This document shows positions 27,706 to 62,850 of a stretch of DNA of 64,000 nucleotides, piece after piece; position 1 is the first letter of the stretch; each line of letters begins with the position of its first letter. The position numbers and the translations under genes were made by a program. The notes under the pieces are model-generated. The model was given only the letters and a program-made list of their open reading frames with translations, was not told the origin of the DNA and did no database searches. The stretch comes from Spirodela intermedia (taxonomy: Eukaryota; Streptophyta; Magnoliopsida; Alismatales; Araceae): NCBI GenBank assembly GCA_902729315.2, contig LR746269.1, positions 780,001-844,000 on the forward strand, given 5' to 3'.

Positions 27706-27852
27706 CATCATCCCCTTCCTCCCAACCTCACACACCCGAGACAAACTCACCCTCTCCGTTTGCCGATTCTCTCACTTCTCCAGCCACCAACCCTAGAACC
27801 AGTAGAGAGAGAAAGAGATTGAGAGAGAGAGAGGAGACAGACACAGAGAGAG

Positions 27853-29118
27853 ATGGGATCGCTGCGGATGCAAAACCTGGCTGTGCTACCGTCGTCTTCC
27901 TCCTCGGCGGCTCCACAGAGAAGCGGAATTCGACCAAGGCTCCCCAACATCACCAAACCCAAGAACCAGAGCCTCTCTGTGCAGAAACTCCCCATGAGGA
28001 TTCCCGTAGAGGAGTTCATGTTCCTACAGCTGACGAACCCTCCGATCGGTCATGCGGAGCAAGCGGAGCAGGCGTCGACGTCCTGCGCAGGCGAGGGAGA
28101 CCATGGAAACACAGCCAAGCTCTACGCAATCATGGAGGCGGCTGCAGATCGGGCGGCGATGCACGACGCCATCGGTGTTCAGAGAGACGGCTGGAACACC
28201 CTCCTGCTCAACTCCCTGAACTCCATGACCCTTGCGGCCTCCATCGCCGCCGGGTTATCGGCCATGGAGCCCCACCAGGGGGCGCTGAAGGTTTCCTCCG
28301 CTATTCTCTACTCCGCCGCCACGGCGATATCCCTCGTGGTGAACAAAATCCAGCCGTCCCAGCTTGCAGAAGAGCAGCGCAACGCCGCCCGCCTGTTCCG
28401 GCAACTGGAGAAGAAGATCCGCACCGCAATCGCCGTCGGCGGCTCCACAGTCGCCGATGTCGAGGACGCGTTGGAGAGGGTGCTGGCTCTAGACAAGGCC
28501 TATCCGCTCTCCCTTCTCCCGGGGATGCTGGAGAAGTTCCCCCAGAAGGTGGAACCCGCCGCCTGGTGGCCGGAACGCCGCCAGCCTAGTCGGAACCGGC
28601 TATCCACCGGGAAGAAAAATGGCTGGAGCGAGGGGCTAGAGTACGCCATGAACGGGGTTCTCAGGACGCTGAAGAAGAACGACACGGCGGAGTACGTGAA
28701 GCTGGGGGAGCTCGTTCTGGGAATCAACAGCGTCTTGGCGATCTCCGGCCCTCTGCTCACCGGACTCGCCGCCGTCGGAGCGAGCATGATGGGCCCCGGC
28801 GTCTCGGGGACATGGCCGGTGCTTGTGGCAGTGGTGGGGGGCGCCCTAGCCACGGTGGTCAACTCGTTCGAGCACGGCGGGCAGGTGGGGATGGTGTTCG
28901 AGATGTCCAGGAACTCCGCGGGTTTCTACAGGGAGATCGAGGAGGAGATCCAGGTCAACTTGGGGGAGGAAGAGGAAGACAAGAGGGAGTACGGTGAGCT
29001 TTTTGAGCTGAAGACGGCCCTGAAGCTCGGCCGGAGCCCGGCGGAGCTCCGGCGACTGGCCTCCCACTGCTGCACCAGGGAAAGCGAGATCAGTGAATAC
29101 GCAGGGAGGCTGTTTTAG
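27853..29118 (+). CDS. At4g22030-like plant protein (annotated 'probable F-box')
   Basis: Intronless 421-aa plant protein. The conserved region starts near residue 90 (KLYAIMEAAADRAAMHDAIG, then WNTLLLNSLNSMTLAASIAA). It continues through a stretch typical of the family (NKIQPSQLAEEQRNAARLF, ALERVLALDKAYPLSLLPGM, WWPER). Two hydrophobic segments lie near residues 118-135 and 295-335. The first 50 residues are Ser/basic-rich and could be an organelle-targeting peptide. The C-terminus (about 365-390) is acidic. The family is annotated from Arabidopsis At4g22030 as a probable F-box protein, but I see no F-box motif here and the biochemical role is unknown. The ATG at 27853 is favoured because it follows a TATA box and GAGA leader; an overlapping frame from 27552 is a shadow. 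A broken copy of the last ~80 codons lies inverted at 30.4-30.7 kb. Confidence 0.8.
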   Translation: MGSLRMQNLAVLPSSSSSAAPQRSGIRPRLPNITKPKNQSLSVQKLPMRIPVEEFMFLQLTNPPIGHAEQAEQASTSCAGEGDHGNTAKLYAIMEAAADRAAMHDAIGVQRDGWNTLLLNSLNSMTLAASIAAGLSAMEPHQGALKVSSAILYSAATAISLVVNKIQPSQLAEEQRNAARLFRQLEKKIRTAIAVGGSTVADVEDALERVLALDKAYPLSLLPGMLEKFPQKVEPAAWWPERRQPSRNRLSTGKKNGWSEGLEYAMNGVLRTLKKNDTAEYVKLGELVLGINSVLAISGPLLTGLAAVGASMMGPGVSGTWPVLVAVVGGALATVVNSFEHGGQVGMVFEMSRNSAGFYREIEEEIQVNLGEEEEDKREYGELFELKTALKLGRSPAELRRLASHCCTRESEISEYAGRLF

Positions 29119-31995: not shown

Positions 31996-34900
31996 CTACT
32001 GGGAGCCACCAGGAAGCCTGGTCCTTATCGGCTTGAGCTTCAAGCCCATGCTCTCCGGCGAGAGGAGCTCCGGCCAGATGTGAGAGGGGCTGAGGGGGCT
32101 CCGGGGGCTGCCGCCGGTGCTCGCCGGCCGGTGGAGACCGTAGCCCATGAGGAAGCGCTCCAGAGGGACCATCATGGCGCTGGCCTGCTCCTCCGTCACA
32201 AGGGACCCGCAAGAACGGACCTGTGCACAGAAGCCTGGTGACGAAGCTATGCAAGGAGGAAGGGGATGGGGAGAGGAAGATTATATATGGAAATATATTA
32301 GTAGCAAACCTCGACCAGGGCGGCGCGTCTCTCGTCGAGCTCGGAGAACATGTGCAGGGCTTCACAGTGGAAGGGGGAGCTCTCGCCGACGAAGATCAAG
32401 GTCCGGCATTGGAGATCCTTGAGACCTTCGGAGATGTCGCGCCGTCTGACGTGACAAAGCGGGGGGGAAAAGGGGATCGATTTTTTTTATTTGTTATATA
32501 TATATACAGGAAATATAATACCCATCAATCGTGAAAATGGGGGATAATAGAAAGCAGAATACCCATCAATGGACTGGAGAAATCGCCAGACGTTTGTACT
32601 CTGCCTCTCGTCGAGCAGCTGCAGGGAGGGGGAGAACGAGAGAGTTCGTCAGGAAAGCTGGTCAGTCCTCAAGAGCACCAATCACCCGTGAAGACATCTT
32701 GACTGACAGAAACACTCACGCTTCGGCAGGCTATCACTAGATTTGACTCGACCATCCGGGCTTCCTGCACATAGAACAAACAGGGGAGAGTAAGGCAACG
32801 GAGGGTGCAATGTTGAAGAAGGTGAGTGCCGATGAGAGATATGTCGGTCCCACTACCTTGCTGAAGTACCGCTGGAGCAGGAGTTCCTTCAGCAAGCCGC
32901 ATGTTCCATAGAAGTAGAGCAGGTTAGCCATCACCTGTAGAGTGTTGAATGGATCTCATTGGTCAGCTGAACTCGCACAGAAGGCCTAAATTGGTAGCTA
33001 CTGCTGTGACCCAGAAGCTCAAACCTTATTGAAGAACCATTCAGTCCACGACGGAGCTTTGCACAGGGGAGAGACCAGTATCAACCCAAGAACCCGCTCC
33101 CCATATTTCATCTGCGAGACAAGTGGGGAAGAAGATATAAACAAGCATGATATGACTGCCATTGTGGTATTTGTTCAAGGAACTTACAGCGAATAGGCTA
33201 AGGATGTAAGCACCGGCAGTCACGCCCATACACATGACAGCTCCTAATCTGGCATTCGGAAAAGATGAGAGGTGCATCAGGATACCACGGGATTTCAAGT
33301 TTTCCCCGCAGAGAAGAATTCGAGATGAATTACTTCAGGTATTACCCAAAGAAGTTGAGAACATCGGCAACTTGATCTGCTAAATCATCAACGGATGGAA
33401 TGGGGACATTTGAAGCAATTCGGGCGGCACCCAGCTGCAAGAACTCTTGATTTTTTAGTTTTTATGAAGTACACTGTTAATCCACAGAGAGCTAACGCTG
33501 TAATAACCAACCTCGTGGCCAGGAGGGCTGATGTGATAAATGCAAAAATTATGGAGCAGCAAGGAAGATACTTCTGGGCAGAAAAACAATACTTGGAAAC
33601 ATGACATATCTGATCAACATAAGAATAAAATATCAGCGAAATTATGGACTGACAATTATATATCAAAATGAGCCGATTTTGTGGATCAGATAGATAAACA
33701 ATGAAGTATTTGATCGACTAAACACTGAGAGACGCTACAACCAAATATAAACGAGACCCTATTGTTGGAATCAGGATCCGACCGTTGATCAAGGAATAGA
33801 GCTGATCACAGTCCTTATTAAGAAATTAAGTCCTGGCACTTACGATTCAAAGCTACATCGGGATATGTGACAAGTGCGGGCTTGCTTCGGTCCCCATAAA
33901 CAACAACAGAAACGGATCCACGCCTACATTTTATGATATGTTCCTGAGTAAGAATCACAGAGAACCGGGGTATTAATAGAGAGTCAAGAGATTCTACGAC
34001 CAAATAACAGGAGAAGGCTATGTATGAGGGGATAGGTGAAACCTCCACGAAAAGTCAGGAAGAATTCCAAAAAGGTTTGAACAGAGAAGGTCGATATGGT
34101 GATCATGAGAAAGGAATGAAGGAAGAAAGGGAGAAAACATAACTAGAAAAGGGCACCACAGAACCGAATAACGAAAGTCTCACAAAAAAAGCTGGCATTT
34201 CGTGAATACAGATGACAAAAGCATGTCGATATAATGATAGCAACCGATCACATCGACATAGTCGACAGTTCCATCATAGCCCTGATAACCTGAAGCTCGG
34301 TCTAACCGTCTGGTAAATGCTTATCGGAGAGGAACAAATATTCGGGAAACAGACACGAAGGTGTCAAGTTACATGTTCCTATTGTTTCAGGCGAGGTGAA
34401 GTCTGAGTAATGTCAAGCTTCGCTTCCTCGTTTAAATCCACATCAAACAAACTTGACCACAATGCATTAAAACAATATCCCTGAGAACCTGAAGATCGGT
34501 CTAACCATCTGGCAAAAGCTTATCAGAGAGCAACAAACTTTCGGGAAACAGATCACGAAGGTGTCAAGTTACATGTTCCTATTGTTTCAGGCGTGGTGAA
34601 GTGTGAGTAATGTCAAACCTCGCTTTCCTTGTTTAAATCCACATCAAACAAACTCGATGGCAATGCATTAAAATGTTTGACAAATTTTCAATGCTCATGA
34701 CATACCGGAGGAAATATAAGAGGCGTAAATAATATCCGGCGCAAGTCTAGATGAAACCAAAAAAGCCAGTCTCATTGAGGTCTACATCCTTTCAACTCAT
34801 CATGAATCTCCAAGTAAAAGAAAAGAATGAAAAACTCTCATACGATAGGCACCAGGCACAAAATCGGGAAATAATCCCCGATAATGGGAATGCGACTAAA

Positions 34901-50663: not shown

Positions 50664-50730
<67 letters not shown>
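50664..50730. repeat. (GA)n microsatellite downstream of GH71 copy 1
   Basis: About 67 bp of GA dinucleotide, followed by TTACACCATAAAAAGATTTC, which also follows the GA tract at 58698-58737. It marks one end of the duplicated segment. Confidence 0.95.
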
Positions 50731-50732
<2 letters not shown>

Positions 50733-50981
50733 ACACCATAAAAAGATTTCTTATTTTTCTCGAGGGCTATCCCTCCTCAAGCAGTCATCACCTTTCCAAG
50801 TCATCGGACACTATCATTTCTATGATAAAGATGAGAAAATCCACAGAGAGAGAAAGAGAGAAAGAGAGAAAGAGAGAAACACGGGCCTTTGGTATCAAAA
50901 GGTTTATTATTCAACAAGATGCAGAAATATTTATTATGAAATTATTGCTCGCTACATAGAACTTCGCCGAAAACTCAACAC

Positions 50982-52256
50982 TTATATAGTTCCGACGTAG
51001 ACATTGAAATTATAGACGTTTGATGGGCAGTCAGTGGTGAAGTCGCGAGCCGACGTTCCGGAGAGTACAGTCAGCCCGTTCCGTTTGAGACTGAACGATT
51101 GCTGACCTGCGCCGATGGCCACCTGAGACATGACGGCGCCGGCGGCAACGTTGAAGGTCGACGACTGCCCCCCCGAAGTTACGACCAGCTGGGCCGGCGA
51201 GGTCAACAGCGTGACGACGAACAGCGTGTCCGAAACATATTGGTATCCCTCCGGCCGACCGGTCGCGTCGTTGCACTGGGCGTTGACCGATTGGATTCTG
51301 TACCAGTATACTATGTTGTCCCCGGTGATCACCGGAGAGGAAGACCCCGCCTTGTAGGCCTTGACGAAGGCATTCTGAATCAAGCGGAAGCCGTCGTGGG
51401 GCATCCCGGTCGTCCAGGCCGAAGCTCCTGCAGGGTACAAGTTGGAATCTGTCCTGAGCGGGGCAATGTATGTGCTCTCCGAGTAGTCGTTCCAGGTCAG
51501 CTGGTAGACAGCGGCGGGGGAGGTGACCAAGATGTTCTGCCAGCGCCGGAGGTACAGATCTTCCGTCGGGAACAGCCAGTTCTTGTTGTACGAGCTGGGA
51601 GGGTAGTGGGTGAAGAACCAGGGGGACACGGGGGCGAAGTAGAGCTTGCTCCCTATCGTCGCCTTCCAGTAGGAGTCCTGGTTGACAAGGTTAGGATAGG
51701 GATCGGCGACTCCCTTGTTGTTGACCGTCCCCCAAGCATTCCAAGGATATCCTCCCTCCACCAGAGAATTGGAGGCCACAAAGGTGGGGTCGGCCCAGTT
51801 GGGAGCGAGGAAGATGTTGGTCATCGACTTGACGCTCGACCAGTCCTGGTTATCTCCGATGAAGGTGGTGACCAGAGGTCTACCCTCCACCGTGAACTGG
51901 GCGGGGGAGGATGCGTAGGTGTTTATGATCTGAACGATGAGATTGGAGTCCGACGGAAGCGAGTAGTAGGCGAAGTCAAAGGAGATGAACATCTTGAAGT
52001 TGCCCGCGGCGGCAGCAGCGGCGTAGGCATAGCCCAGCTGGGTGTTAGTGTAGCTGTCCTTCCCGATGTTTAGGGCGAAGGCATCGATGCCTGAAGCCTT
52101 TGCGTCAGCGATCTCCGTGGCCCAATTCGACTGCGTGTAGCCGCTGAGGATGCCGACGACGACATGGGCGAAAACTGACTTGGGTATTGTAGCGCCGCGA
52201 ACACCGAGGAGAAGTGAAGAAGATACCAGCAGGCCGAGGAGCGCAACAGGCTTCAT
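50982..52256 (-). CDS. GH71 alpha-1,3-glucanase (mutanase-like), copy 1
   Basis: Intronless 424-aa protein that looks like glycoside hydrolase family 71, endo-acting enzymes on alpha-1,3-glucan known mainly from fungi. Residues 1-21 (MKPVALLGLLVSSSLLLGVRG) form a clear secretion signal. A (beta/alpha)8-type domain (about 24-335) has typical GH71 blocks: KSVFAHVVVGILSGYTQSNW, ADAKASGIDAFALNIG, TQLGYAYAAAAA, FKMFISFDFAYYS, GRPLVTTFIGDN, and YQLTWNDYSESTYIAPL, whose Asp and Glu are the expected active-site acids. Residues about 336-424 form the usual C-terminal beta domain (YWYRIQS to YNFNVYVG). No carbohydrate-binding module is fused. The start at 52256 is chosen because it opens the signal peptide; the in-frame ATG at 52334 adds a basic stretch whose frame is not conserved in the sister copy. 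A TATA box lies at 52434. The protein differs from copy 2 at about 19 positions. Likely an apoplastic wall- or fungus-directed enzyme (inference). Confidence 0.93.
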   Translation of the reverse strand: MKPVALLGLLVSSSLLLGVRGATIPKSVFAHVVVGILSGYTQSNWATEIADAKASGIDAFALNIGKDSYTNTQLGYAYAAAAAAGNFKMFISFDFAYYSLPSDSNLIVQIINTYASSPAQFTVEGRPLVTTFIGDNQDWSSVKSMTNIFLAPNWADPTFVASNSLVEGGYPWNAWGTVNNKGVADPYPNLVNQDSYWKATIGSKLYFAPVSPWFFTHYPPSSYNKNWLFPTEDLYLRRWQNILVTSPAAVYQLTWNDYSESTYIAPLRTDSNLYPAGASAWTTGMPHDGFRLIQNAFVKAYKAGSSSPVITGDNIVYWYRIQSVNAQCNDATGRPEGYQYVSDTLFVVTLLTSPAQLVVTSGGQSSTFNVAAGAVMSQVAIGAGQQSFSLKRNGLTVLSGTSARDFTTDCPSNVYNFNVYVGTI

Positions 52257-52433
52257 GTTTGGAGGGCACCCAGATGACCGTCTCTTTCTTTGTTTTTTTC
52301 GCCGTAAGAAGAGATCGAGGGGAGTAGAGGCCAACCAGCATTAAGGAAGGGAATGATGACGAGGAACCTTCTGTTTCCTCACAGGGGGAACCGTTTCTGT
52401 TGTTGGCTGCGATCTGCGGATGTCGAAGGCGGA

Positions 52434-52440
52434 TTATATA
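52434..52440 (-). promoter_or_regulatory. TATA box of GH71 copy 1
   Basis: TATATAA on the minus strand in the context TTCTTCTATATAA, about 180 bp upstream of the ATG at 52256. The same element and spacing occur at copy 2. Confidence 0.7.
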
Positions 52441-52690
52441 GAAGAATTAAGAGTCGGAAGCGAATAAGGGGTTTCTAGATTGTACTCGTGGAACAGTGAT
52501 TTCCGAGTCCTCACCGGGAAGAGGGGGCGGCGGCCGCCGGTGAGACAACGACGGAGAACACCCAATCCACGGAGTCAACAGATATCCGAGAAACGCGGTT
52601 AGAGAACAAGCATACACGGAGACGCCAACCTGGAGGATGTGCCCATTAATGAGGCGGCAGTGATGACGACGGACAAAGGCCAAGTCAAAC

Positions 52691-55600
52691 ACGTCTACTC
52701 CTGCACATAAAACACAGTTATTCCATTGATGTAACTATTTGTAATAGTATTATGTGACTTGTCGATTTCTTGGAAAGACGCGTAATTCCATGAAACAAAC
52801 AACCTTTTTACATTCTCTCTCTCTCTCTCTCTGGCTCCTCTTACATACTCTTTATTGAATTCTAGTGTCAATCTAATTTGCATGTTGGGTAAATATGTGT
52901 AAAGAGTAAAGTAGTCATTTTATGTCATCATGAAATTTATTACATATTTATAAATTTGAATGAACGAGTACTTATAATTTTTGTTGCCTTCTTATTTCAA
53001 TATTTCAGGAAAATGAGTGTAGTTAGATAGTTGACTCAGCTTGTATGAAGAGACACAAGAAAAGAAATTTAAGCATTACAAGAGAAAAGAGGGAGAATGG
53101 TAGTTCTAACTTTCATACAGTTCGTGTTGTATGTTTACAAGTAGTGTTCAACGTTCTATACTATGTACATGTTGTATGAAGAGGCAACCAGGAGGGTTGT
53201 GAATTATAACCTTGTGCATGTTGGCTCTTGGAGTTATAAGTTTGTTGATGTGGGAAAAGGTGTATACAAGTAAAATGGTCATTTCACACTATTATAAAAT
53301 TTCAATGTCTAAAAATTTATGAAATCAGAGTTTATTAACCTTTGAAAATTTCTACAAAAATTTAGAGCAATTTGGAATGTTTCAATTAACATTCTCATTT
53401 CAAGAAAATGAGTAAACTTGATGCTAATGAAATGAAAAGAAAAGGAAAAACTTGAAAGTGCTACAATGCAGACTACCCAAACTATAATACTCATGTATGC
53501 TGCAATACTTGCGACCCATGAAAATTTTTCTTCACAATTGTTACAATACATAACTATGAGCTAGCCAATAACCACATGTGGGTAGCCCTTAGAACAGGTT
53601 TAAATGAGAATATTTTGTTTGCTATGTTGGTTTTTAGATCTTTCATAGTTTTGAGGTTGAAAAAAAAAGTCAAAGGGTTCAGTGATGACTTTACATTGTT
53701 AAAAATATATTTATTTTGGAAAGAGCTAAGCATAATGTTTTTACAAGTCTTAGAATAGTTATATGTCATCAGAAGAGTGATTGAATGGCCCATTGTCTCT
53801 TCCTACTTTTCATAAAAAAAAATCCACTTATGAGTATACTCACTTAATTGGAAGAAATTTACTGAAAGAGAAAAACATCGTCTAATGGGAAAATAGTGAT
53901 TTCACATTAATAAGATTATATCTTAAACTCATGAAAATATTCTTTACCCATTTGGGCTTACAAGTTTTCTTTATTCACTTCATTTTATTAAGTGAATTGA
54001 CTCACTTTGTATGAGACATGCCCAAGTTACCATTATGAGAGTGTCTTGATAGTCTTATATGGTAAGACTAAATAAGGAGTCAATTCACTTGTTATTGTGA
54101 TTCTAAAATAACAAAGCAAGTGAGTCATTATAATGGGAAAACACTACAATCACTAACAGTAAGTTATCATTCAAGTAAATTAGTTGACTCATTTTAAAAT
54201 AAAAAGATAACTTAAGAGAAAGTGCATACAAAGGTAAAATAATATTTTTTAATTAAAAAATGAATATTTACATGATCTTAGATAGTATTTTTAATATTCT
54301 AAGAGATATTATTTTCAAAAAAATTCTATTTCTTTCCCTTTTGCAGGAAGTGAGTCAAACTCATGAGTTCACTCATATAAAGAGAAGTTGGGGCTAGAAT
54401 AGTGTAAGCCAAAATAAGCATAAGACAAGCTGATACATTAATTTTAACAATATGAGAATTAAATTATTCAGCATGCAACGAGATGACTCAGTACTCCAAG
54501 AACTTCATTTCATGTTTTCTCTCAAGATTTCAAGTCACTCTTCTCCCATAGAAACTTATGTATACTCGAGCCTACAAATTCATAGCAACAAAGGAACACG
54601 CCAAAGTGTAAGAGTAATAAATTATTATATTCTTGTATCTGAGCAACTTTTTTCCAGAAACCTATAAAAAGTATTTTTCAAAAATATTTGAGTTCACTAG
54701 AGTTGTTCAATTTAGTTGGATGGTGCCTGAAGACTATGTTCAATTGATGTACTAACAAGAGCTAGTAGCGTTGATATTGAAACAGCCACACTTAAATTAT
54801 TTACTATAGTTTAACTTTAAATCTTTCTTCCACAGCTTGATCACCTTATTTGAGTTTGATATACTTATCCTAAACTTCACATCATCAACAGAATGTATTT
54901 TATAGTTATTTGGTCCCAAATCTACATCTAATCCTAAGGATGTGTCCCTAAGTTCTTCTACTAGATGATATGCCTTGTCTTCACTCTTATTCATAAAATT
55001 TCCTTTACATGGGTATTTTTTATTTTTTATGTTGTTCTATTAGTCTAATATAAAAATATTAACCAATTTTTTACTTAGGAACTTCATCGTGTGGATATTT
55101 TCTCATAATTCTTTTAAATCTACTCCACGGTGTGGACGTTTTTCCTTTTCAATTTTTGTGGGCTTACCATTTTAAGCTGACCCAACTGATGTAGCTTCAA
55201 TGATGCAGCTTTTAATAGTTTTCATACGAAAATGCATACATGTCAAAACCATGGATTAAATTTTCTTTTTATTGTGATGTGGCTAAGAAGGCTAATAGCT
55301 TAATCAATAGGTCTTGGTCTACTTTTCACACGCTTCAACACAACTCCAATTTTTTTTCCAGAAAAGTAAGAAATTTCTAATTTATAATCTTACATCATGA
55401 ATATATTATTGAAAAATATGAAATACAATTCAAGGCTATAAACTTTGGATTATTGTATTAATACGTAAATTAAAATATCAAAATAATTTCATAAATATAA
55501 ATGATCTAAAGTACAAGTTTAATCATGAATTTTCTATATAGTATTTGAACATGTAAGTATATTTTAATTCAAATATATGTAGTTAATCATAAATTTATGT

Positions 55601-58600
55601 TAATATTATATAAAATTAAACATATTTTCCTTATAAGCTTAGAGTGTTACAGCTCCCTAATGTAATTCTATGCTCTCATTTTACATTTCCTCTTCTTCAT
55701 CAACAACCGAAAACAAAGCATCAAAGAGTCCTAGTAATATTCACTCTAATACAAGTTCAAAGCATTTCTTTTTTCTTATTAGTCCAATATTTTGTACCTT
55801 GAACACTTGAATGACTTTGTTCTTTCAACTTTTTTTAAAAAAACTTTCTACATGTAACTAATTTGACTCTAACCTATGGAATCCTTCTCAAATATTCTTT
55901 TCTTAAAATTTTCTATTTATGTAACTTTGAAACCATAAAATGGTGAAAATTTGGGTTTTAGAGATAACCCTTCTTTGATACTTGATAAATTATACACATA
56001 CAAAGTGACCATTTTATATCATTATAGACAGTTATTGGAAACCAAGGTATTGTCCTCTTTGGGCCCAACATACTTTACCTTTCATTCCTTGTAAGGAGTC
56101 TCATATTAAGACCAAGGAAACACAACTAAAGAACTTGTACCATCAAGAAATTCTTGTTTGATATGAAGTTGGAGGTCCAAGGAAGGGATAAAAATGGTCA
56201 GAGCCTAATTGTGTAGTATAGTGTAGAATTATAGAGTTTGATAGATTCAAAATTTCATAAATATAATGCATGACCTTATTATCATTACACTATAAGGACA
56301 CCTTCAAAAGATAGGTAAATCAACTTGTTAGATTCTACGTGACAGCACATAGTATTAAGAGGGACAAGGGGAGATTAGTTTTGCTTGAATTCCTTTATAC
56401 TTATATAATCATGATGTTAGGACAACTTCAAGAAATAAGATTAGTTTAAAATTTGTCACGCAAGTGACTTGAAAAATGTGAAAATGTGGATACAAACATC
56501 TAAAGGCCCAAAATGACCTCAACCCCAATATCTATTGGGCTAGTCCCAACACTAAGGATATTGTGTCACAAACTAGTGATTTGTAGTGTTTAACTTTGCC
56601 CCTTTTTAATTCTTGACTTTTTAGCAAATTTGAGTTTAAAGGGCATTTAGATCATTTTTCAACCACAATTAAAGGCTTTAACACTCTAGATGATCAGTAA
56701 TAATATCTTCATTCTCTTTGAGATATTTTTTATTTACATGAAGATTAAAGCGATCATTATGGCTTTAAAGATTGTGAAAAAAAATTCAATTGTTGTATTT
56801 TTCATGAATTGAAGTAATTTGTCTTATGAACTGAAAACCTGAATATTTGTTCATCTAAAACTTATGCTACATCAAATATAAATGGAAAACACATTTAACA
56901 CCTATAATTTATAGTTGTTCAGTCTACTTGACATATTCTACTCCCCAAATGGTCATATATTACGCAGGCACTTAACGAACTCTTCGCCAACAATCACTTG
57001 TGTGCCGGATGCCTAACCAACCTAACCTCTCTTTAGTGCTAGGAAAGCATGCAGAAGTACAAAGAGAGATGTTTGGATCAATGTAGATTTTATTCTAGTT
57101 CTAGAATACAAGGGGGAAAAAGGATAAGGAGAATCTTCTCACTACCTCTGCCCCAACTAGGCAAAGGCTCTCCCTATTTAGGGGAGAGGATGGAGAACCT
57201 CCTTCCATAATTTGGATGGAGCATGTCCCCTAGTTGGACTTGCCTTCCTTAGTCAAGACTTGGTCACATCTTCCCTTTCTTGGATGGTTCCCTATTTTGT
57301 TCAAGAATAGTTCAAACAAGTCCCAAAGGTGCCCGCATGTTCCTAACTGACAATTACACTCTGGTTGTCACACACATCTAGATCGTGATGATAATCCTAT
57401 GACTATTATGCCCATGTCATGCGCCCACATCTTGGTCATGTGCACGCATGTTGCACTTCTGCTCCCCACTTGCTGCACCTGTCATACTCTCATACCATGC
57501 ATCCCCACATTGTACTGCCGGATGCGCACCTACCACATGCACCCGCTTTGCACCACTCCTATGCCAATACTATGCTGCGCCATGCCAATCATTAGCAAGA
57601 CCTTGCACCCACAGATGTAGTGTCTCCACGGCATCTGTGGTTCTCCAATGATCATTTAATGTTCTAAAGTTGGTCTTTTAATAGAAAAGACGTCCTATGT
57701 TCATTCAATGGTCTAAAGTTGGTCTTTCATAGAGGTAACATGTCCAATAGTAACTTCCATTTTCATCGAGGCGACAGTAATACATACATTGACAACAAAA
57801 TTCTTGATAAACTATATATATCATTTTAGCACATATATGCAATCATCTTGGGCATTTTCAAGGGTCAAAAGAATACTTAATTTCGTTTATAATGTAAAAT
57901 AAGTATTACCCAACTAGGTAGAATTATTTGTTAATTTAAAGACATATTTATCATTTATGGCATCATTAATGTTTTGTTTAAATAATTAAAAAGGCAAGAG
58001 GACGAAATAAGACAAACTATTGCCTCAATAAAACCTAAAGGAGTGAAGAAGGCATATAGATCTTATCCAAGGATGACTCATGCTTCTATTTGTTAAATAG
58101 ATAAACTTACACAGGTGTTGGAATTTAGCACAAGGACTTTATGCAAAGAAGATAAAACTGATTCTCCTCCTTTTATAAAAATTGATAAAGAAATGAGGGT
58201 AAATGATTCAAATAGTTTTTCTCAAATTTTGGTGAAATTGTGTTGATGAGTTATTATACTAGAAGGAAAATTTAGAATAGGAAATTCCGAATTAGAGTGC
58301 AAGCTCCACATTGGCCATTGAAAGGATATATGATCAAGCTTGAGATGATATTATATTAAAATTATTTGATTAATTCAGTTTTAAAAGGTCTTACCACATT
58401 TATTATTATTCCTTACCATCCATTTTAACTATCAATAAGTATTATCTATTTCCCCTTATACTTTTGAAGTAGGAACTCTCCAATTGAATCATGTGTTCTT
58501 CCAATTAATATTAGTTTTTGAATTATTATATGTTATACTACATAATTTCGTAACTTCTACGAAATCACAATACTATGTTTCAACTTTGGAGATAACGTCA

Positions 58601-58697
58601 TACACCAGCCTGATATCTATATGAATAAGAAGGCAGATAATCTTCAATGACATAGAGATGCAAATGGATAAATAATGTGAATATTAAATAAATAGAT
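52691..58697. other. AT-rich region between the GH71 copies
   Basis: No gene recognised over 6 kb. 52.9-54.4 kb contains recurring degenerate words (GTTGACTCA..TTGTATGA, AAAATGGTCATTT, GAAAATGAGT) suggesting an old repeat array. 55690-55770 repeats a block from 50.5 kb. 57.4-57.65 kb is a C-rich CCCA/GCAC-biased patch with spurious frames. The rest is plain AT-rich DNA. Confidence 0.5.
55690..55770. repeat. dispersed repeat shared with 50440-50540
   Basis: Shares AGCATCAAAGAGTCCTAGTA and TAATACAAGTTCAAAGCATT with the segment just before GH71 copy 1. Same orientation. Confidence 0.85.

Positions 58698-58737
<40 letters not shown>
58698..58737. repeat. (GA)n microsatellite downstream of GH71 copy 2
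   Basis: 40-bp GA tract followed by the same TTACACCATAAAAAGATTTC word as at copy 1. Confidence 0.95.
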
Positions 58738-58739
<2 letters not shown>

Positions 58740-59009
58740 ACACCATAAAAAGATTTCTTATTTTTCTAAAGGTGATTGAGATCGTCAACGTGTGGATGAT
58801 CTAGGGTGGAGGGTTACCCCCTTGAACCAGTGATAACTTTTGCAAGTAATCGGACACTAATCATTTCTCTCATAAGGATAAGAAAATCCTGAAAGTAAGT
58901 AAGAGAGAAGAAAGAGAGAGAGAGGGAGAGAGAAGGGGTTTTATTGATGCATAAATATTTATTCTGACATTATTGTACACTACATAGAACGTTGCTGAAA
59001 AGTCCGAAC

Positions 59010-60284
59010 TTATATAGTTCCGACGTAGACATTGAAATTGTAGACGTTTGATGGGCAGTTAATGGTGAAGGAGCGAGTCGACGTTCCGGAGAGGACAGTC
59101 AGCCCGTTCCGTTTGAGACTGAACGATTGTTGGCCTGCTCGAATGGCTACCTTAGTCATGACGGCGCCGGCGGCAACGTTGAAGGTCGACGACTGCCCCC
59201 CCGAAGTTACGACCAGCTGGGCCGGCGAGGTCAACAGCGTGACGACGAACAGCGTGTCCGAAACATATTGGTACCCCTCCGGCCGACCGGTCGCGTCGTT
59301 GCACTGGGCGTTGACCGATTGGATTCTGTACCAGTATACTATGTTGTCTTTGGAGATCACCGGAGAGGAAGACCCCGCCTTGTAGGCCTTGACGAAGGCA
59401 TTCTGAATCAAGCGGAAGCCGTCGTGGGGCATCCCGGCCGTCCAGGCAGAAGCTCCTGCAGGGTACAAGTTGGAATCTGTCCTGAGCGGGGCAATGTATG
59501 TGCTCTCCGAGTAGTCGTTCCAGGTCAGCTGGTAGACAGCGGCGGGGGAGGTGACCAAGATGTTCTGCCAGCGCCGGAGGTACAGATCTTCCGTCGGGAA
59601 CAGCCAGTTCTTGTTGTACGAGCTGGGAGGGTAGTGGGTGAAGAACCAGGGGGACACGGGGGCGAAGTAGAGCTTGCTCCCTATCGTCGCCTTCCAGTAG
59701 GAGTCCTGGTTGACAAGGTTAGGATAGGGATCGGCGACTCCCTTGTTGTTGACCGTCCCCCAAGCATTCCAAGGATATCCTCCCTCCACCAGAGAATTGG
59801 AGGCCACGAAGGTGGGGTCGGCCCAGTTGGGAGCGAGGAAGATGTTGGTCATCGACTTGACGCTCGACCAGTCCTGGTTATCTCCGATGAAGGTGGTGAC
59901 CAGAGGTCTACCCTCCACCTTGAACTGGGCGGGGGAGGATGCGTAGGTGTTTATGATCTGAACGATGAGATTGGAGTCCGACGGAAGCGAGTAGTAGGCG
60001 AAGTCGAAGGAGATGAACATCTTGAAGTTGCCCGCGGCGGCAGCAGCGGCGTAGGCATAGCCCAGCTGGGTGTTAGTGTAGCTGTCCTTCCCGATGTTCA
60101 GGGCGAAGGCATCGATGCCTGAAGCCTTTGCGTCAGCGATCTCCTTGGCCCATTTCGACTGCGTGTAGCTGCTAAGGATGCCGACTACGACATGGGCGAA
60201 AACTGACTTGGGCATCGTAGCACTACGAGCACCGAGGAGAAGCGAAGAGGATACCAGCAGGCCCAGGAGCGTAGCTGGCTTCAT
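59010..60284 (-). CDS. GH71 alpha-1,3-glucanase (mutanase-like), copy 2
   Basis: Second intact, intronless 424-aa GH71 gene, about 95% identical in protein to copy 1. It keeps the signal peptide (MKPATLLGLLVSSSLLLGARS), every catalytic-domain block including WNDYSES and TTFIGDN, and the C-terminal beta domain. Changes cluster at the two ends: in the signal and first ~25 mature residues (GYTQSNWAT becomes SYTQSKWAK), and in the last 100 residues (VITGDN to VISKDN, SQVAIGAG to TKVAIRAG, ARDFTTD to TRSFTIN). Residues about 50-310 are almost unchanged, with one T-to-K change after AQF. Several changes add lysine or arginine, so this form is more basic. The start at 60284 opens the signal peptide; the longer frame from 60365 is probably 5' UTR. 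Prolidase lies upstream on the same strand, with its stop about 1.1 kb away. Confidence 0.93.
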   Translation of the reverse strand: MKPATLLGLLVSSSLLLGARSATMPKSVFAHVVVGILSSYTQSKWAKEIADAKASGIDAFALNIGKDSYTNTQLGYAYAAAAAAGNFKMFISFDFAYYSLPSDSNLIVQIINTYASSPAQFKVEGRPLVTTFIGDNQDWSSVKSMTNIFLAPNWADPTFVASNSLVEGGYPWNAWGTVNNKGVADPYPNLVNQDSYWKATIGSKLYFAPVSPWFFTHYPPSSYNKNWLFPTEDLYLRRWQNILVTSPAAVYQLTWNDYSESTYIAPLRTDSNLYPAGASAWTAGMPHDGFRLIQNAFVKAYKAGSSSPVISKDNIVYWYRIQSVNAQCNDATGRPEGYQYVSDTLFVVTLLTSPAQLVVTSGGQSSTFNVAAGAVMTKVAIRAGQQSFSLKRNGLTVLSGTSTRSFTINCPSNVYNFNVYVGTI

Positions 60285-60465
60285 GGTTCGGAGGGCACCC
60301 AGCTGAACGTCTGTTTCTTTCTTTGTTTTCGCCGTAAGAAGAGATTCAAGGAGAGCTGAGGCCAACCAGAATTAAGAAAGGGAATGAAGAGGGAGAAGCT
60401 TCTGTTTCTTCTCAGGGGGGGACCGTTTCTGCTGTTCGCTGCAGTCTGCGGATGTCGGAGGCGGC

Positions 60466-60472
60466 TTATATA
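60466..60472 (-). promoter_or_regulatory. TATA box of GH71 copy 2
   Basis: TATATAA in the same context and at the same distance from the ATG as in copy 1. Confidence 0.7.
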
Positions 60473-61426
60473 GAAGAATTAAGGGTCGGAAGTCCTGGTT
60501 CCTCTCTCTCACTCTCTCTCTTTCTCTCGCTTCCTCGCTCTCGCTCTCGCTCTATCTACCTATCTAGTTGCGTATGTGTAAAAGCGGTTGCTTGCTGGGA
60601 CTGCCCTCATTAATGGGTTATCGTTCTATGGCGTTGTCAGCATTAGACAGCGTCGCGGAGGTTCTCCTTCTCCGTCGGACTGGATAACACCCCCACCATC
60701 TTAGTCTGGAGAATGAGTATGATGTGCCGCCGGGTATGTCGGCATGACGGGTCGCTGAGAGGAAGGACCTGTGGTTCGCGGTCTATGAGCGTTGACTTCT
60801 TCACTCCAGAGTTTGGGTATGAGAGATAGACACGGATTCGAATAACATGCTTCTGGGTCGTACTCTTGGAAATAGCGACTTCCCAGTCCAACTCCACGAG
60901 AGGGGCGGCCGCCGCCGTAGAACACCCAATCCACGCAGTCAAAGGGCTGATATCCGAGAAACGTGGTTAGAGAAAGAGCAGATCAGGAGACGTCTACCCG
61001 GAGGCTAGAGCCCTTTGATGAGGCGGCAAGCATGGTGACGACCGACGGACTCCCCGTTACACAGGCCAGATGGCGGAGAAAACTTGCGGTCTACACTCTT
61101 AATGGCATTGATCAGCTGAACAGTATGTCTAGTTCCAGGAATTGCGGTAAGATAACCCACGGATTTGTTGGTCAAACAGAGGAATTGCCATTTGGAATGT
61201 TTGACTTTTTGCTTTAAATTGTTCTAAGAGATCGAGACCGATTTGTCTCTTGGAATCTGGGTTGGAAGACTGGAAGATTTTGATCCCACCTTTTGGCAAG
61301 AGTGATGCCTTGAAGAGAAATAACATTTCATAAATCCAGCTCCACGAAGGTCAACATGGCGGCAGAAGGGAGATGGGCCTCTCATCCGGCAACAGTTGAC
61401 CAGCTGTGCCTTCAACAGTGGGCACG
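60473..61426. other. GH71 copy 2 upstream region / prolidase 3' flank
   Basis: Holds the ~350-bp segment unique to this copy (with TC-rich runs at 60500-60555), the shared distal block (about 60860-61060) and then prolidase 3' flank. Short frames here are not supported. Confidence 0.5.
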
Positions 61427-62850
61427 TCAACGGTAGCCGCCGTTCTGACTGAGGGTTGCAGGGGGGGGCGGCGGCCACGGTGCTCCAGCCATCACCGCCT
61501 CGATTTCCCAGGTCTTCCGAGGGCAGTTGGTGAGATTCCTGCAGCCCTCCGCCGTGACGAGCTGGGAAGCATAAAAAGAGGCCACACCGACCTTGAGATA
61601 TATGAATAATAATATGTTCTATGTAGTATAAGTTCAGCAGTTAATAAAACCACTGCATCATATTAGCCTGGTTTCATGAACCAAGCCCAGAAGAGAAAAA
61701 AGAACAATCTGGCCCGAGATTCATCGGGCCGGGCCCGGATTATATTTCTCGGGCTTTTACCTAGGGGTTGACCCAGAGCCTAGTTTTTGGGGATTTTCTC
61801 CACAACACCCCTACTCAAAAGCTTCATTTTCTGATGGTTAGAACATACGAGTGCAATTTTCCAAGTCAGGCAGACGATGAACTAGCTGACTTAGGAGAAG
61901 TTACAGCGTCATACCACATTGCTTTCAATCCTGACGCCGCCAAAGCCCCTGAATCTGCTGATCTCTCTGCAATTAAAGTGCTTCGATTTGTCTGGATCTT
62001 CCATCGCCGGAACAAGCAGAGCGTCGATGAAATAGCAGCCGGGCTCCACCGTGATCACCTTCAAAAAAGCCATTACTCCCACTGTTCATAATTTCAGGGT
62101 GGCATTCGGTCTTGAGAGACCTGGATCACTATACACTATGCAGAAGCATCAATTAGAAGGAAATGAGCATGTAAATAAGGCAGTGTAAGAACAAGGCAAT
62201 ATATAATGATGTTATTACCCGAAATATATTATGATCAATGTGCAATGATGCATCATGCATTATGTTAATACTTATCTTATTAATAAGATTCTGGGCATTT
62301 TGGTTTACCAAAAACGTTTGGATCCAGACAAAATAAGATGATATAGATTGAGAAGTCTCAGGTGAAAATGTGACCAGAAAAAAGCATGATTGTAGACTTT
62401 TTCACGGATTTTCAAGCATTAGAAGATCAGTACAAACCAAGCCCTCTTGCAGTGTCCTCGTTGTCCTCAAGGACTTTAGTCCCGGCTCTTTGGGGCGCTC
62501 CAATCCCTAGATTAGGACATTATTAATCGCTATTCGAAAGAACAATTTTGAAACACAGAATTTTTTGGGAGCCAGATTCAGGGAAATAAGGTTGTGGGGA
62601 CCTTTGGGTAGCCCCCAGGATCATGTGTGTCGATTCCAATGAGGTGGCCAAGACCATGTGGCATGAACACAGCACCCAGTCTTCCAACCATCATGTCATC
62701 AACATCACTGAACCAAATCCAAGTGCAAATAAAATTTCCATCAAAGTTGAATTTCAGAAACTGTTGCAGCGATGGAATCATTTAACACAAACCTACCCCT
62801 GAATAAGCCCACCTTCCTTCAGTGACTCAAGAATGGTTCTCTCTGCTAAT
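61427..62850 (-). CDS. Xaa-Pro dipeptidase (prolidase), C-terminal exons
   Basis: Metallopeptidase family M24; cleaves X-Pro dipeptides in the cytosol. Five exons are visible on the minus strand, 5' to 3': 62850-62797, 62707-62602, 62506-62438, 62058-61915, 61561-61427, all in phase and ending in TGA. Landmarks: [107 protein letters not shown]. The metal-binding His of GLGH and the Glu residues of TVEPG and RIES are present. The last exon ends in a short Pro-rich tail that depends on a run of eight C. Exon 4 would run into an in-frame stop if its donor were not used. The first exon here starts mid-codon, so upstream exons lie beyond the right edge, past an intron of over 1.1 kb that holds a copia relic. 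Confidence 0.93.

What the first reader, a model, noticed from the sequence alone, without database searches (positions are those of the whole stretch)
50982..60284. Two intact secreted GH71 (fungal-type) alpha-1,3-glucanase genes in a plant chromosome
Seen: two uninterrupted 424-aa frames with signal peptide, GH71 blocks and the WNDYSES motif, each with a TATA box, between clear plant genes (NDL, prolidase). Known: characterised GH71 mutanases are fungal, and alpha-1,3-glucan is a wall polymer that pathogens use to mask themselves from plant defences. Inference: the gene entered this lineage from a fungus (intronless, GC-rich island in AT-rich DNA), was kept and duplicated, and may act in defence or symbiosis.
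Basis: partly seen in the sequence, partly recalled or inferred. Interest (0 to 1): 0.88.

Follow-up and report, generated by a model that had tools for sequence, protein, structure and literature searches.

The report
Ancient fungal glucanase in aroid plants
A small floating duckweed carries two intact copies of a gene for an enzyme that cuts a fungal cell-wall sugar; relatives in other arum-family plants suggest that the gene was taken from a fungus long ago and has been kept ever since.

The parts
50982..52256 (-). GH71 gene copy A, 424 aa, one uninterrupted frame
59010..60284 (-). GH71 gene copy B, 424 aa, one uninterrupted frame
51477..51488 (-). copy A codons Asp257-Tyr-Ser-Glu260, aligned with the AnGH71C DxxE dyad and with Agn1 D237/E240
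   Evidence: role of the dyad from PMC12394665
59505..59516 (-). copy B codons Asp257-Tyr-Ser-Glu260
52191..52256 (-). copy A hydrophobic N-terminus, putative signal peptide (about residues 1-22)
   Evidence: by eye; pLDDT under 50 there in the model
60219..60284 (-). copy B hydrophobic N-terminus, putative signal peptide
   Evidence: by eye; mostly pLDDT under 50 in residues 1-17
52428..52444 (-). TATA-containing block conserved between the copies, copy A
60460..60476 (-). TATA-containing block conserved between the copies, copy B
50762..52460 (-). duplicated segment, unit A (92.1% identical to unit B over 1704 columns; a further 80% match at 52549-52674)
58809..60492 (-). duplicated segment, unit B (further match at 60913-61046)
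27823..29118 (+). F-box At4g22030-like neighbour (PF14476); a Colocasia homologue, Taro_012898, is on a contig of the same length as the Colocasia GH71, Taro_012892
32307..33943 (-). Ndr (NDL) exons of a plant neighbour gene
62578..62781 (-). prolidase-like exon (by eye; further frames in L083)

Best explanation
The two genes are tandem copies of a fungal-type GH71 alpha-1,3-glucanase that entered the aroid lineage from a fungus before duckweeds and taro-like aroids parted. It then passed down vertically, apparently at one chromosomal place, and was duplicated in the Spirodela line. SHOWN: intact frames, whole GH71 domain, conserved catalytic dyad, predicted barrel plus beta-sandwich, one aroid clade, fungal rather than bacterial side of the family, a shared-contig neighbour in Colocasia, more silent than replacement change and uneven divergence between copies. 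INFERRED: direction of transfer and fungal donor, secretion to the apoplast, inverting hydrolysis of alpha-1,3-glucan (Asp257 as base, Glu260 as acid), and use against fungi by trimming or unmasking wall alpha-1,3-glucan.
Against: The AU test does not reject aroids outside all sampled fungi (p 0.44; 0.429). The serine in WNDYSES is commoner in bacterial rows (WNDYSE in 15 of 20) than in the other listed hits (5 of 143, as WNDFSES). Conifer and bryophyte GH71s are not in the trees. No expression or activity data. The dyad loop is the least certain part of the models (pLDDT under 50 at 257-259; block means 73-81 at 251-280). Residues beside the dyad differ from fungal ones, so the substrate may have shifted. 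AnGH71B and C act only minimally on insoluble alpha-1,3-glucan (abstract). Low dN/dS between the copies is partly a product of conversion. Colocasia has at least three such F-box proteins, and the linked one is not the highest-scoring, so orthology of that neighbour is not proven.
Confidence: 0.72

Rival explanations
1. An old eukaryotic GH71 inherited vertically by plants and lost in nearly all lineages except aroids; no fungal transfer.
For: The AU test cannot exclude aroids as sister to all sampled fungi; gymnosperm and bryophyte GH71s are in print.
Against: Would need very many independent losses; no other plant name among the 120 hits listed in each; the Torreya paper found GH71 only in gymnosperms and earlier lineages among 19 plants, of possible bacterial origin (passages).
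Confidence: 0.1
2. Transfer into aroids from a non-fungal eukaryote that itself got GH71 from fungi (for example a mycoparasitic oomycete), or from another unsampled donor.
For: Mycoparasitic Pythium species carry GH71 taken from fungi (PMC7720654 passages); the aroid stem is long (1.1-1.7 changes per column).
Against: The paper places the Pythium gain in the ancestor of P. oligandrum, with an ascomycete source, which seems too young; no oomycete among the named hits listed (a share of the hits is unnamed).
Confidence: 0.13
3. Fungal contamination or an assembly chimera.
For: Only the fungal-type sequence itself.
Against: Two diverged copies inside a 10.17-Mb contig; Pfam-confirmed plant genes on the low side and a prolidase read by eye on the high side; no listed fungal hit above 45%; homologues in Colocasia and Anthurium.
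Confidence: 0.01
4. The enzyme has left its fungal role: residues next to the dyad changed and it now acts on another alpha-glucan or a plant-internal substrate.
For: Seven positions are fixed in the five aroids where at least 85% of 80 fungal rows share another residue; two (Y251, Q252) lie shortly before the dyad and one (A265) shortly after. WNDYSES in 5 of 5 aroids and 0 of 143 other listed hits.
Against: Dyad and fold are kept; no plant alpha-1,3-glucan substrate is known to me (recalled).
Confidence: 0.2

Closest known systems
AnGH71C (Aspergillus nidulans) and Agn1 (fission yeast), GH71 alpha-1,3-glucanases
   Same: Domain, barrel plus beta-sandwich, DxxE dyad, no extra Pfam domain; 43% and 35% identity in the structural alignment
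   Different: Encoded in a plant; Y251, Q252, S259 and A265 around the dyad; activity untested
GH71 of gymnosperms, mosses and liverworts (Picea, Taxus, Cryptomeria, Torreya)
   Same: GH71 in plants (PMC12394665 section 6; PMC10006428 passages)
   Different: Reported as of possible bacterial origin and absent from angiosperms, while the aroid genes fall on the fungal side. Not compared directly here
Beta-1,6-glucanase genes moved from Epichloe fungi into cool-season grasses (LpBGNL, AsBGNL)
   Same: Fungal wall-degrading glucanase gene in an angiosperm nucleus (PMC5567365 abstract; PMC8432771 passages)
   Different: Other linkage; LpBGNL has 90% DNA identity to the Epichloe gene and is dated at 9-13 million years, against 45% protein identity or less in the hit lists here
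GH71 of mycoparasitic Pythium
   Same: Fungal GH71 gained by a non-fungal eukaryote (PMC7720654 passages)
   Different: An oomycete; traced to ascomycetes
GH99 endo-alpha-mannosidases
   Same: Related barrel, acidic pair at a like place (PMC12394665 section 10)

Membership tests
GH71 (alpha-1,3-glucanase) | PF03659 match over the whole domain above the curated cut-off | tested here: met
   381.7 and 385.6 bits against 34; profile 1-374 of 375
GH71 (alpha-1,3-glucanase) | DxxE catalytic dyad | tested here: met
   D257/E260 align with the AnGH71C dyad (one off from the paper's Asp265/Glu268 in my chain count) and with Agn1 D237/E240
GH71 (alpha-1,3-glucanase) | (beta/alpha)8 barrel with packed C-terminal beta-sandwich | tested here: met
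GH71 (alpha-1,3-glucanase) | inverting hydrolysis of alpha-1,3-glucan or nigero-oligosaccharides | not testable with these tools
   needs protein and assay
Fungal side of GH71 | groups with fungal and not with bacterial GH71 | tested here: met
   20 bacterial rows against 65 fungal plus 5 aroid rows, 100/100; 10 against 45 rows, 100/100
Fungus-to-plant horizontal gene transfer | plant gene nested inside fungi with support | tested here: inconclusive
   nested in the best bacteria-rooted trees (pairing with one fungal group 90/75 and 81/64), but AU p 0.44 and 0.429 for aroids outside fungi
Fungus-to-plant horizontal gene transfer | integrated in a plant chromosome | tested here: met
   10.17-Mb contig; plant genes at 5-34 kb by Pfam and protein search; prolidase on the other side by eye
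Fungus-to-plant horizontal gene transfer | patchy distribution in plants | tested here: inconclusive
   only aroids among plant names in the 120 listed of 645 and of 989 hits; lower-ranking hits were not seen
Gymnosperm/bryophyte GH71 | sister relation to published plant GH71s | not tested

The most novel reading that the evidence does not exclude
An aroid ancestor captured a fungal alpha-1,3-glucanase, and the family has kept it for on the order of a hundred million years (age recalled) as a secreted enzyme that unmasks or digests fungal walls, with the surroundings of the active site retuned. It would be among the oldest known fungal genes in flowering plants and independent of the gymnosperm GH71s.
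Probability: 0.45. Interest if true: 0.8.

Novelty: new member of a known kind. Interest (0 to 1): 0.62.

Why it matters
Fungal genes in flowering-plant nuclei are few, and the grass beta-1,6-glucanase, presented as the first, is dated at 9-13 million years (PMC5567365 abstract). A fungal-type alpha-1,3-glucanase at what looks like one orthologous place in duckweed and taro would push such events far back, and it goes against the published statement that GH71 is absent from angiosperms. Alpha-1,3-glucan is a fungal wall component and the enzyme family is poorly understood (abstract). A plant that makes its own enzyme against it would allow a direct test of that part of plant-fungus interplay, in duckweed, a convenient laboratory plant.

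Tried and rejected
Recent transfer from a listed fungus: rejected, no listed fungal hit exceeds 45% by BLASTP, or 47% in the alignments of part of them (35 rows, 80 rows). GC-rich island as a mark of transfer: rejected, GC3 is like that of the one neighbour gene compared. Contamination or chimera: see rivals. GH99: Z falls from 50.7 to about 19. Nesting inside fungi with a bacterial root: tried twice, not decisive (AU p 0.44, 65 fungal and 20 bacterial rows; 0.429, 40 of 67 fungal and 10 of 20 bacterial rows). Mobile-element origin of the spacer: the stretch 56950-57800 matched only itself and two weak places; no conclusion. Bacterial relatives: scan with the aroid alignment found none; tblastn with a fungal GH71 on plasmid records found one, Nonomuraea, 24.4%; a scan with that protein gave 76 loci, 20 of which went into. 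Phage records: no match. NCBIfam: no family for either copy. Rows dropped before the trees: P0097 (short domain), then rows at or over 75% identity to a kept one, 148 to 70. The third and last protein search went to the F-box neighbour, so conifer and moss GH71s could not be sought. Literature: ten searches were answered; the three that pair GH71 or transferred glucanase, or fungal transfer, with Spirodela, Araceae or Colocasia returned 0 papers. That speaks for that library and those words only. The Colocasia DNA itself could not be read.

Full report
OBSERVATION. The window holds two uninterrupted frames on the minus strand, 50982-52256 and 59010-60284, each 424 aa. Both match Pfam Glyco_hydro_71 over its full length (381.7 and 385.6 bits, cut-off 34). 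A search of the 136,496,439-base genome had two candidates, both scored, and these are the two genes. The window is bases 780001-844000 of contig C6, which is 10,170,165 bases long.

ORGANISM. A protein that NCBI names Spirodela intermedia (P0158) is 100% identical over 424 residues to a place on contig C9. Genome size (136.5 Mb) and a 13.40-Mb contig C9 fit the published assembly of S. intermedia clone 8410 (136.6 Mb; Si09 of 13.4 Mb; passages of PMC7645714). The host is thus a duckweed, an aroid in the broad sense (recalled).

NEIGHBOURS. Of ten segments scanned, four matched Pfam: deoxyhypusine synthase, Dof and two mitochondrial-carrier pieces. An F-box At4g22030-like gene (PF14476) is at 27823-29118 and Ndr exons are at 32307-33943. 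On the other side a prolidase-like gene starts at 62578; that name rests on reading exons by eye. Pfam did not match the exon, a Peptidase_M24 search did not list the place, and the exon is single-copy in the genome. Three F-box relatives and an Ndr gene lie about 34-42 kb apart on contig C9, where no GH71 was found; this may be an old duplicated block.

RELATIVES. The first protein search gave 645 hits at E <= 1e-5 among 7997 scored candidates, of which 120 were listed. First come P0003 (94%, unnamed source), P0004 (77%, Anthurium amnicola) and P0005 (78%, Colocasia esculenta, Taro_012892). The other listed hits have 40-45% identity, and those with names are fungi. A profile search from the five aroid proteins gave 989 hits, 120 listed, with the same three first, no further plant name and 39-45% for the rest. 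Lower-ranking hits were not seen, so plants with weaker similarity are not excluded.

SYNTENY. The F-box gene lies 22 kb from GH71 copy A. Its hit P0155 is Taro_012898 of Colocasia, 56% identical, on a contig of 494,368 bases; the Colocasia GH71, Taro_012892, is on a contig of exactly that length. Equal contig length and near-consecutive tags say that both genes are linked in taro too. A caution: Colocasia shows at least three such F-box proteins, and the linked one ranks third of them, so this neighbour is a family member at the right place, not a proven orthologue. One acquisition before the duckweed/taro split is still the simplest account. The age (on the order of a hundred million years) is recalled and comes from no call.

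TREES. From 148 GH71 proteins (5 aroid, 143 others), 147 domains passed and 70 rows were kept after thinning at 75% identity. The five aroid rows form one group at 100/100 in every tree. With 20 bacterial rows as root, bacteria part from fungi plus aroids at 100/100, and the aroids pair with a group of 36 fungal rows (90/75). Without bacteria that pairing has 98/94, and 99/93 with Agn1 and AnGH71C added. In a smaller rooted set the pairing has 81/64, with Agn1 and Umbelopsis P0123 branching off earlier at weak support. Fungi form one side of a branch in 2% and 6% of 200 bootstrap trees. Against this, an AU test does not reject a tree with all fungi together and aroids outside (p 0.44; p 0.429). 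The branch to bacteria is very long (3.12 + 3.12 changes per column). Donor lineage and strict nesting therefore stay open, and the direction fungus to plant is an inference from distribution.

WHAT IS IN PRINT. PMC12394665 (section 6 read) says that CAZy holds two plant GH71s, from Sitka spruce, with BLAST relatives in yew, Japanese cedar, some mosses and liverworts. PMC10006428 (passages) says of 19 plants that GH71 was present only in gymnosperms and earlier lineages and not in angiosperms, and of possible bacterial origin. PMC12122422 (one passage) lists GH71 among genes that a pine gained horizontally, without saying there from what donor. None of these names is among the hits listed, although a close orthologue should outrank 45%-identical fungi. 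This suggests, without a direct test, that the aroid genes are a separate acquisition. Searches pairing GH71 with Spirodela, and transfer with Araceae or with Colocasia and Spirodela, found no paper.

SELECTION. The copies differ at 43 of 1275 coding bases, 24 of them at third positions; dN and dS are 0.022 and 0.075 (NG86, ratio 0.29), with ratios of 0.28 (YN00) and 0.25 (ML). Differences are unevenly spread: an identical run of 359 bases was reached in 0 of 20,000 shuffles, and third positions alone give a 119-codon run with p 0.007, as gene conversion would. The duplicated unit takes in upstream DNA with a conserved TATATAA block. The ratio between copies is thus a soft sign; the firmer sign of constraint is 77-78% identity with intact frames in Colocasia and Anthurium.

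COMPOSITION. GC3 is 0.76 in both copies and 0.81 in the F-box neighbour, the only other gene measured; window GC is 0.405. GC-rich coding DNA in AT-rich surroundings is thus not special to GH71 here and says nothing about origin.

MECHANISM, MOST LIKELY. Transcribed from a TATA promoter and secreted by its N-terminal signal, the enzyme cuts alpha-1,3-glucan in walls of fungi at the plant surface or in the apoplast, by inversion at D257/E260. Transcription in Spirodela, secretion, activity and benefit are inferred. AnGH71B and C act only minimally on insoluble glucan (abstract), so the plant enzyme may trim soluble or exposed chains rather than dissolve walls.

VERDICT. The protein is a member of a known family; the lineage, the age and the likely independence from gymnosperm GH71s are what is new. 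Interest 0.62.

Noticed in passing
G000:C9:11459923-11466930 and 11501418-11503312: Three F-box At4g22030-like genes and an Ndr gene on C9 mirror the F-box/NDL pair of the window, without GH71; possibly an old duplicated block.
   Followed up: partly
window 51421-51779 and 59449-59807: The two GH71 copies are identical over 359 bases in the middle and diverged towards both ends, a sign of gene conversion.
   Followed up: yes
hit lists: A Wolffia australiana protein is in the database (P0162), but no Wolffia GH71 was listed; the gene may be lost or unannotated there. The named S. intermedia records also showed no GH71 row.
   Followed up: no
L027, L030, L031: GH71 genes 54-57% identical to that of Nonomuraea in contigs labelled Candidatus Saccharibacteria; either transfer or mis-binned contigs.
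   Followed up: no
L006 (NZ_LT559118.1): An 11.85-Mb Nonomuraea record listed as a plasmid, more likely a chromosome.
   Followed up: no
P0006, Exidia glandulosa protein: The protein begins with what looks like the C-terminal piece of another GH71 domain, perhaps a fused gene model.
   Followed up: no
window 50665-50730 and 58699-58737: Long AG repeats lie just 3' of both GH71 copies, at the edge of the duplicated unit.
   Followed up: no
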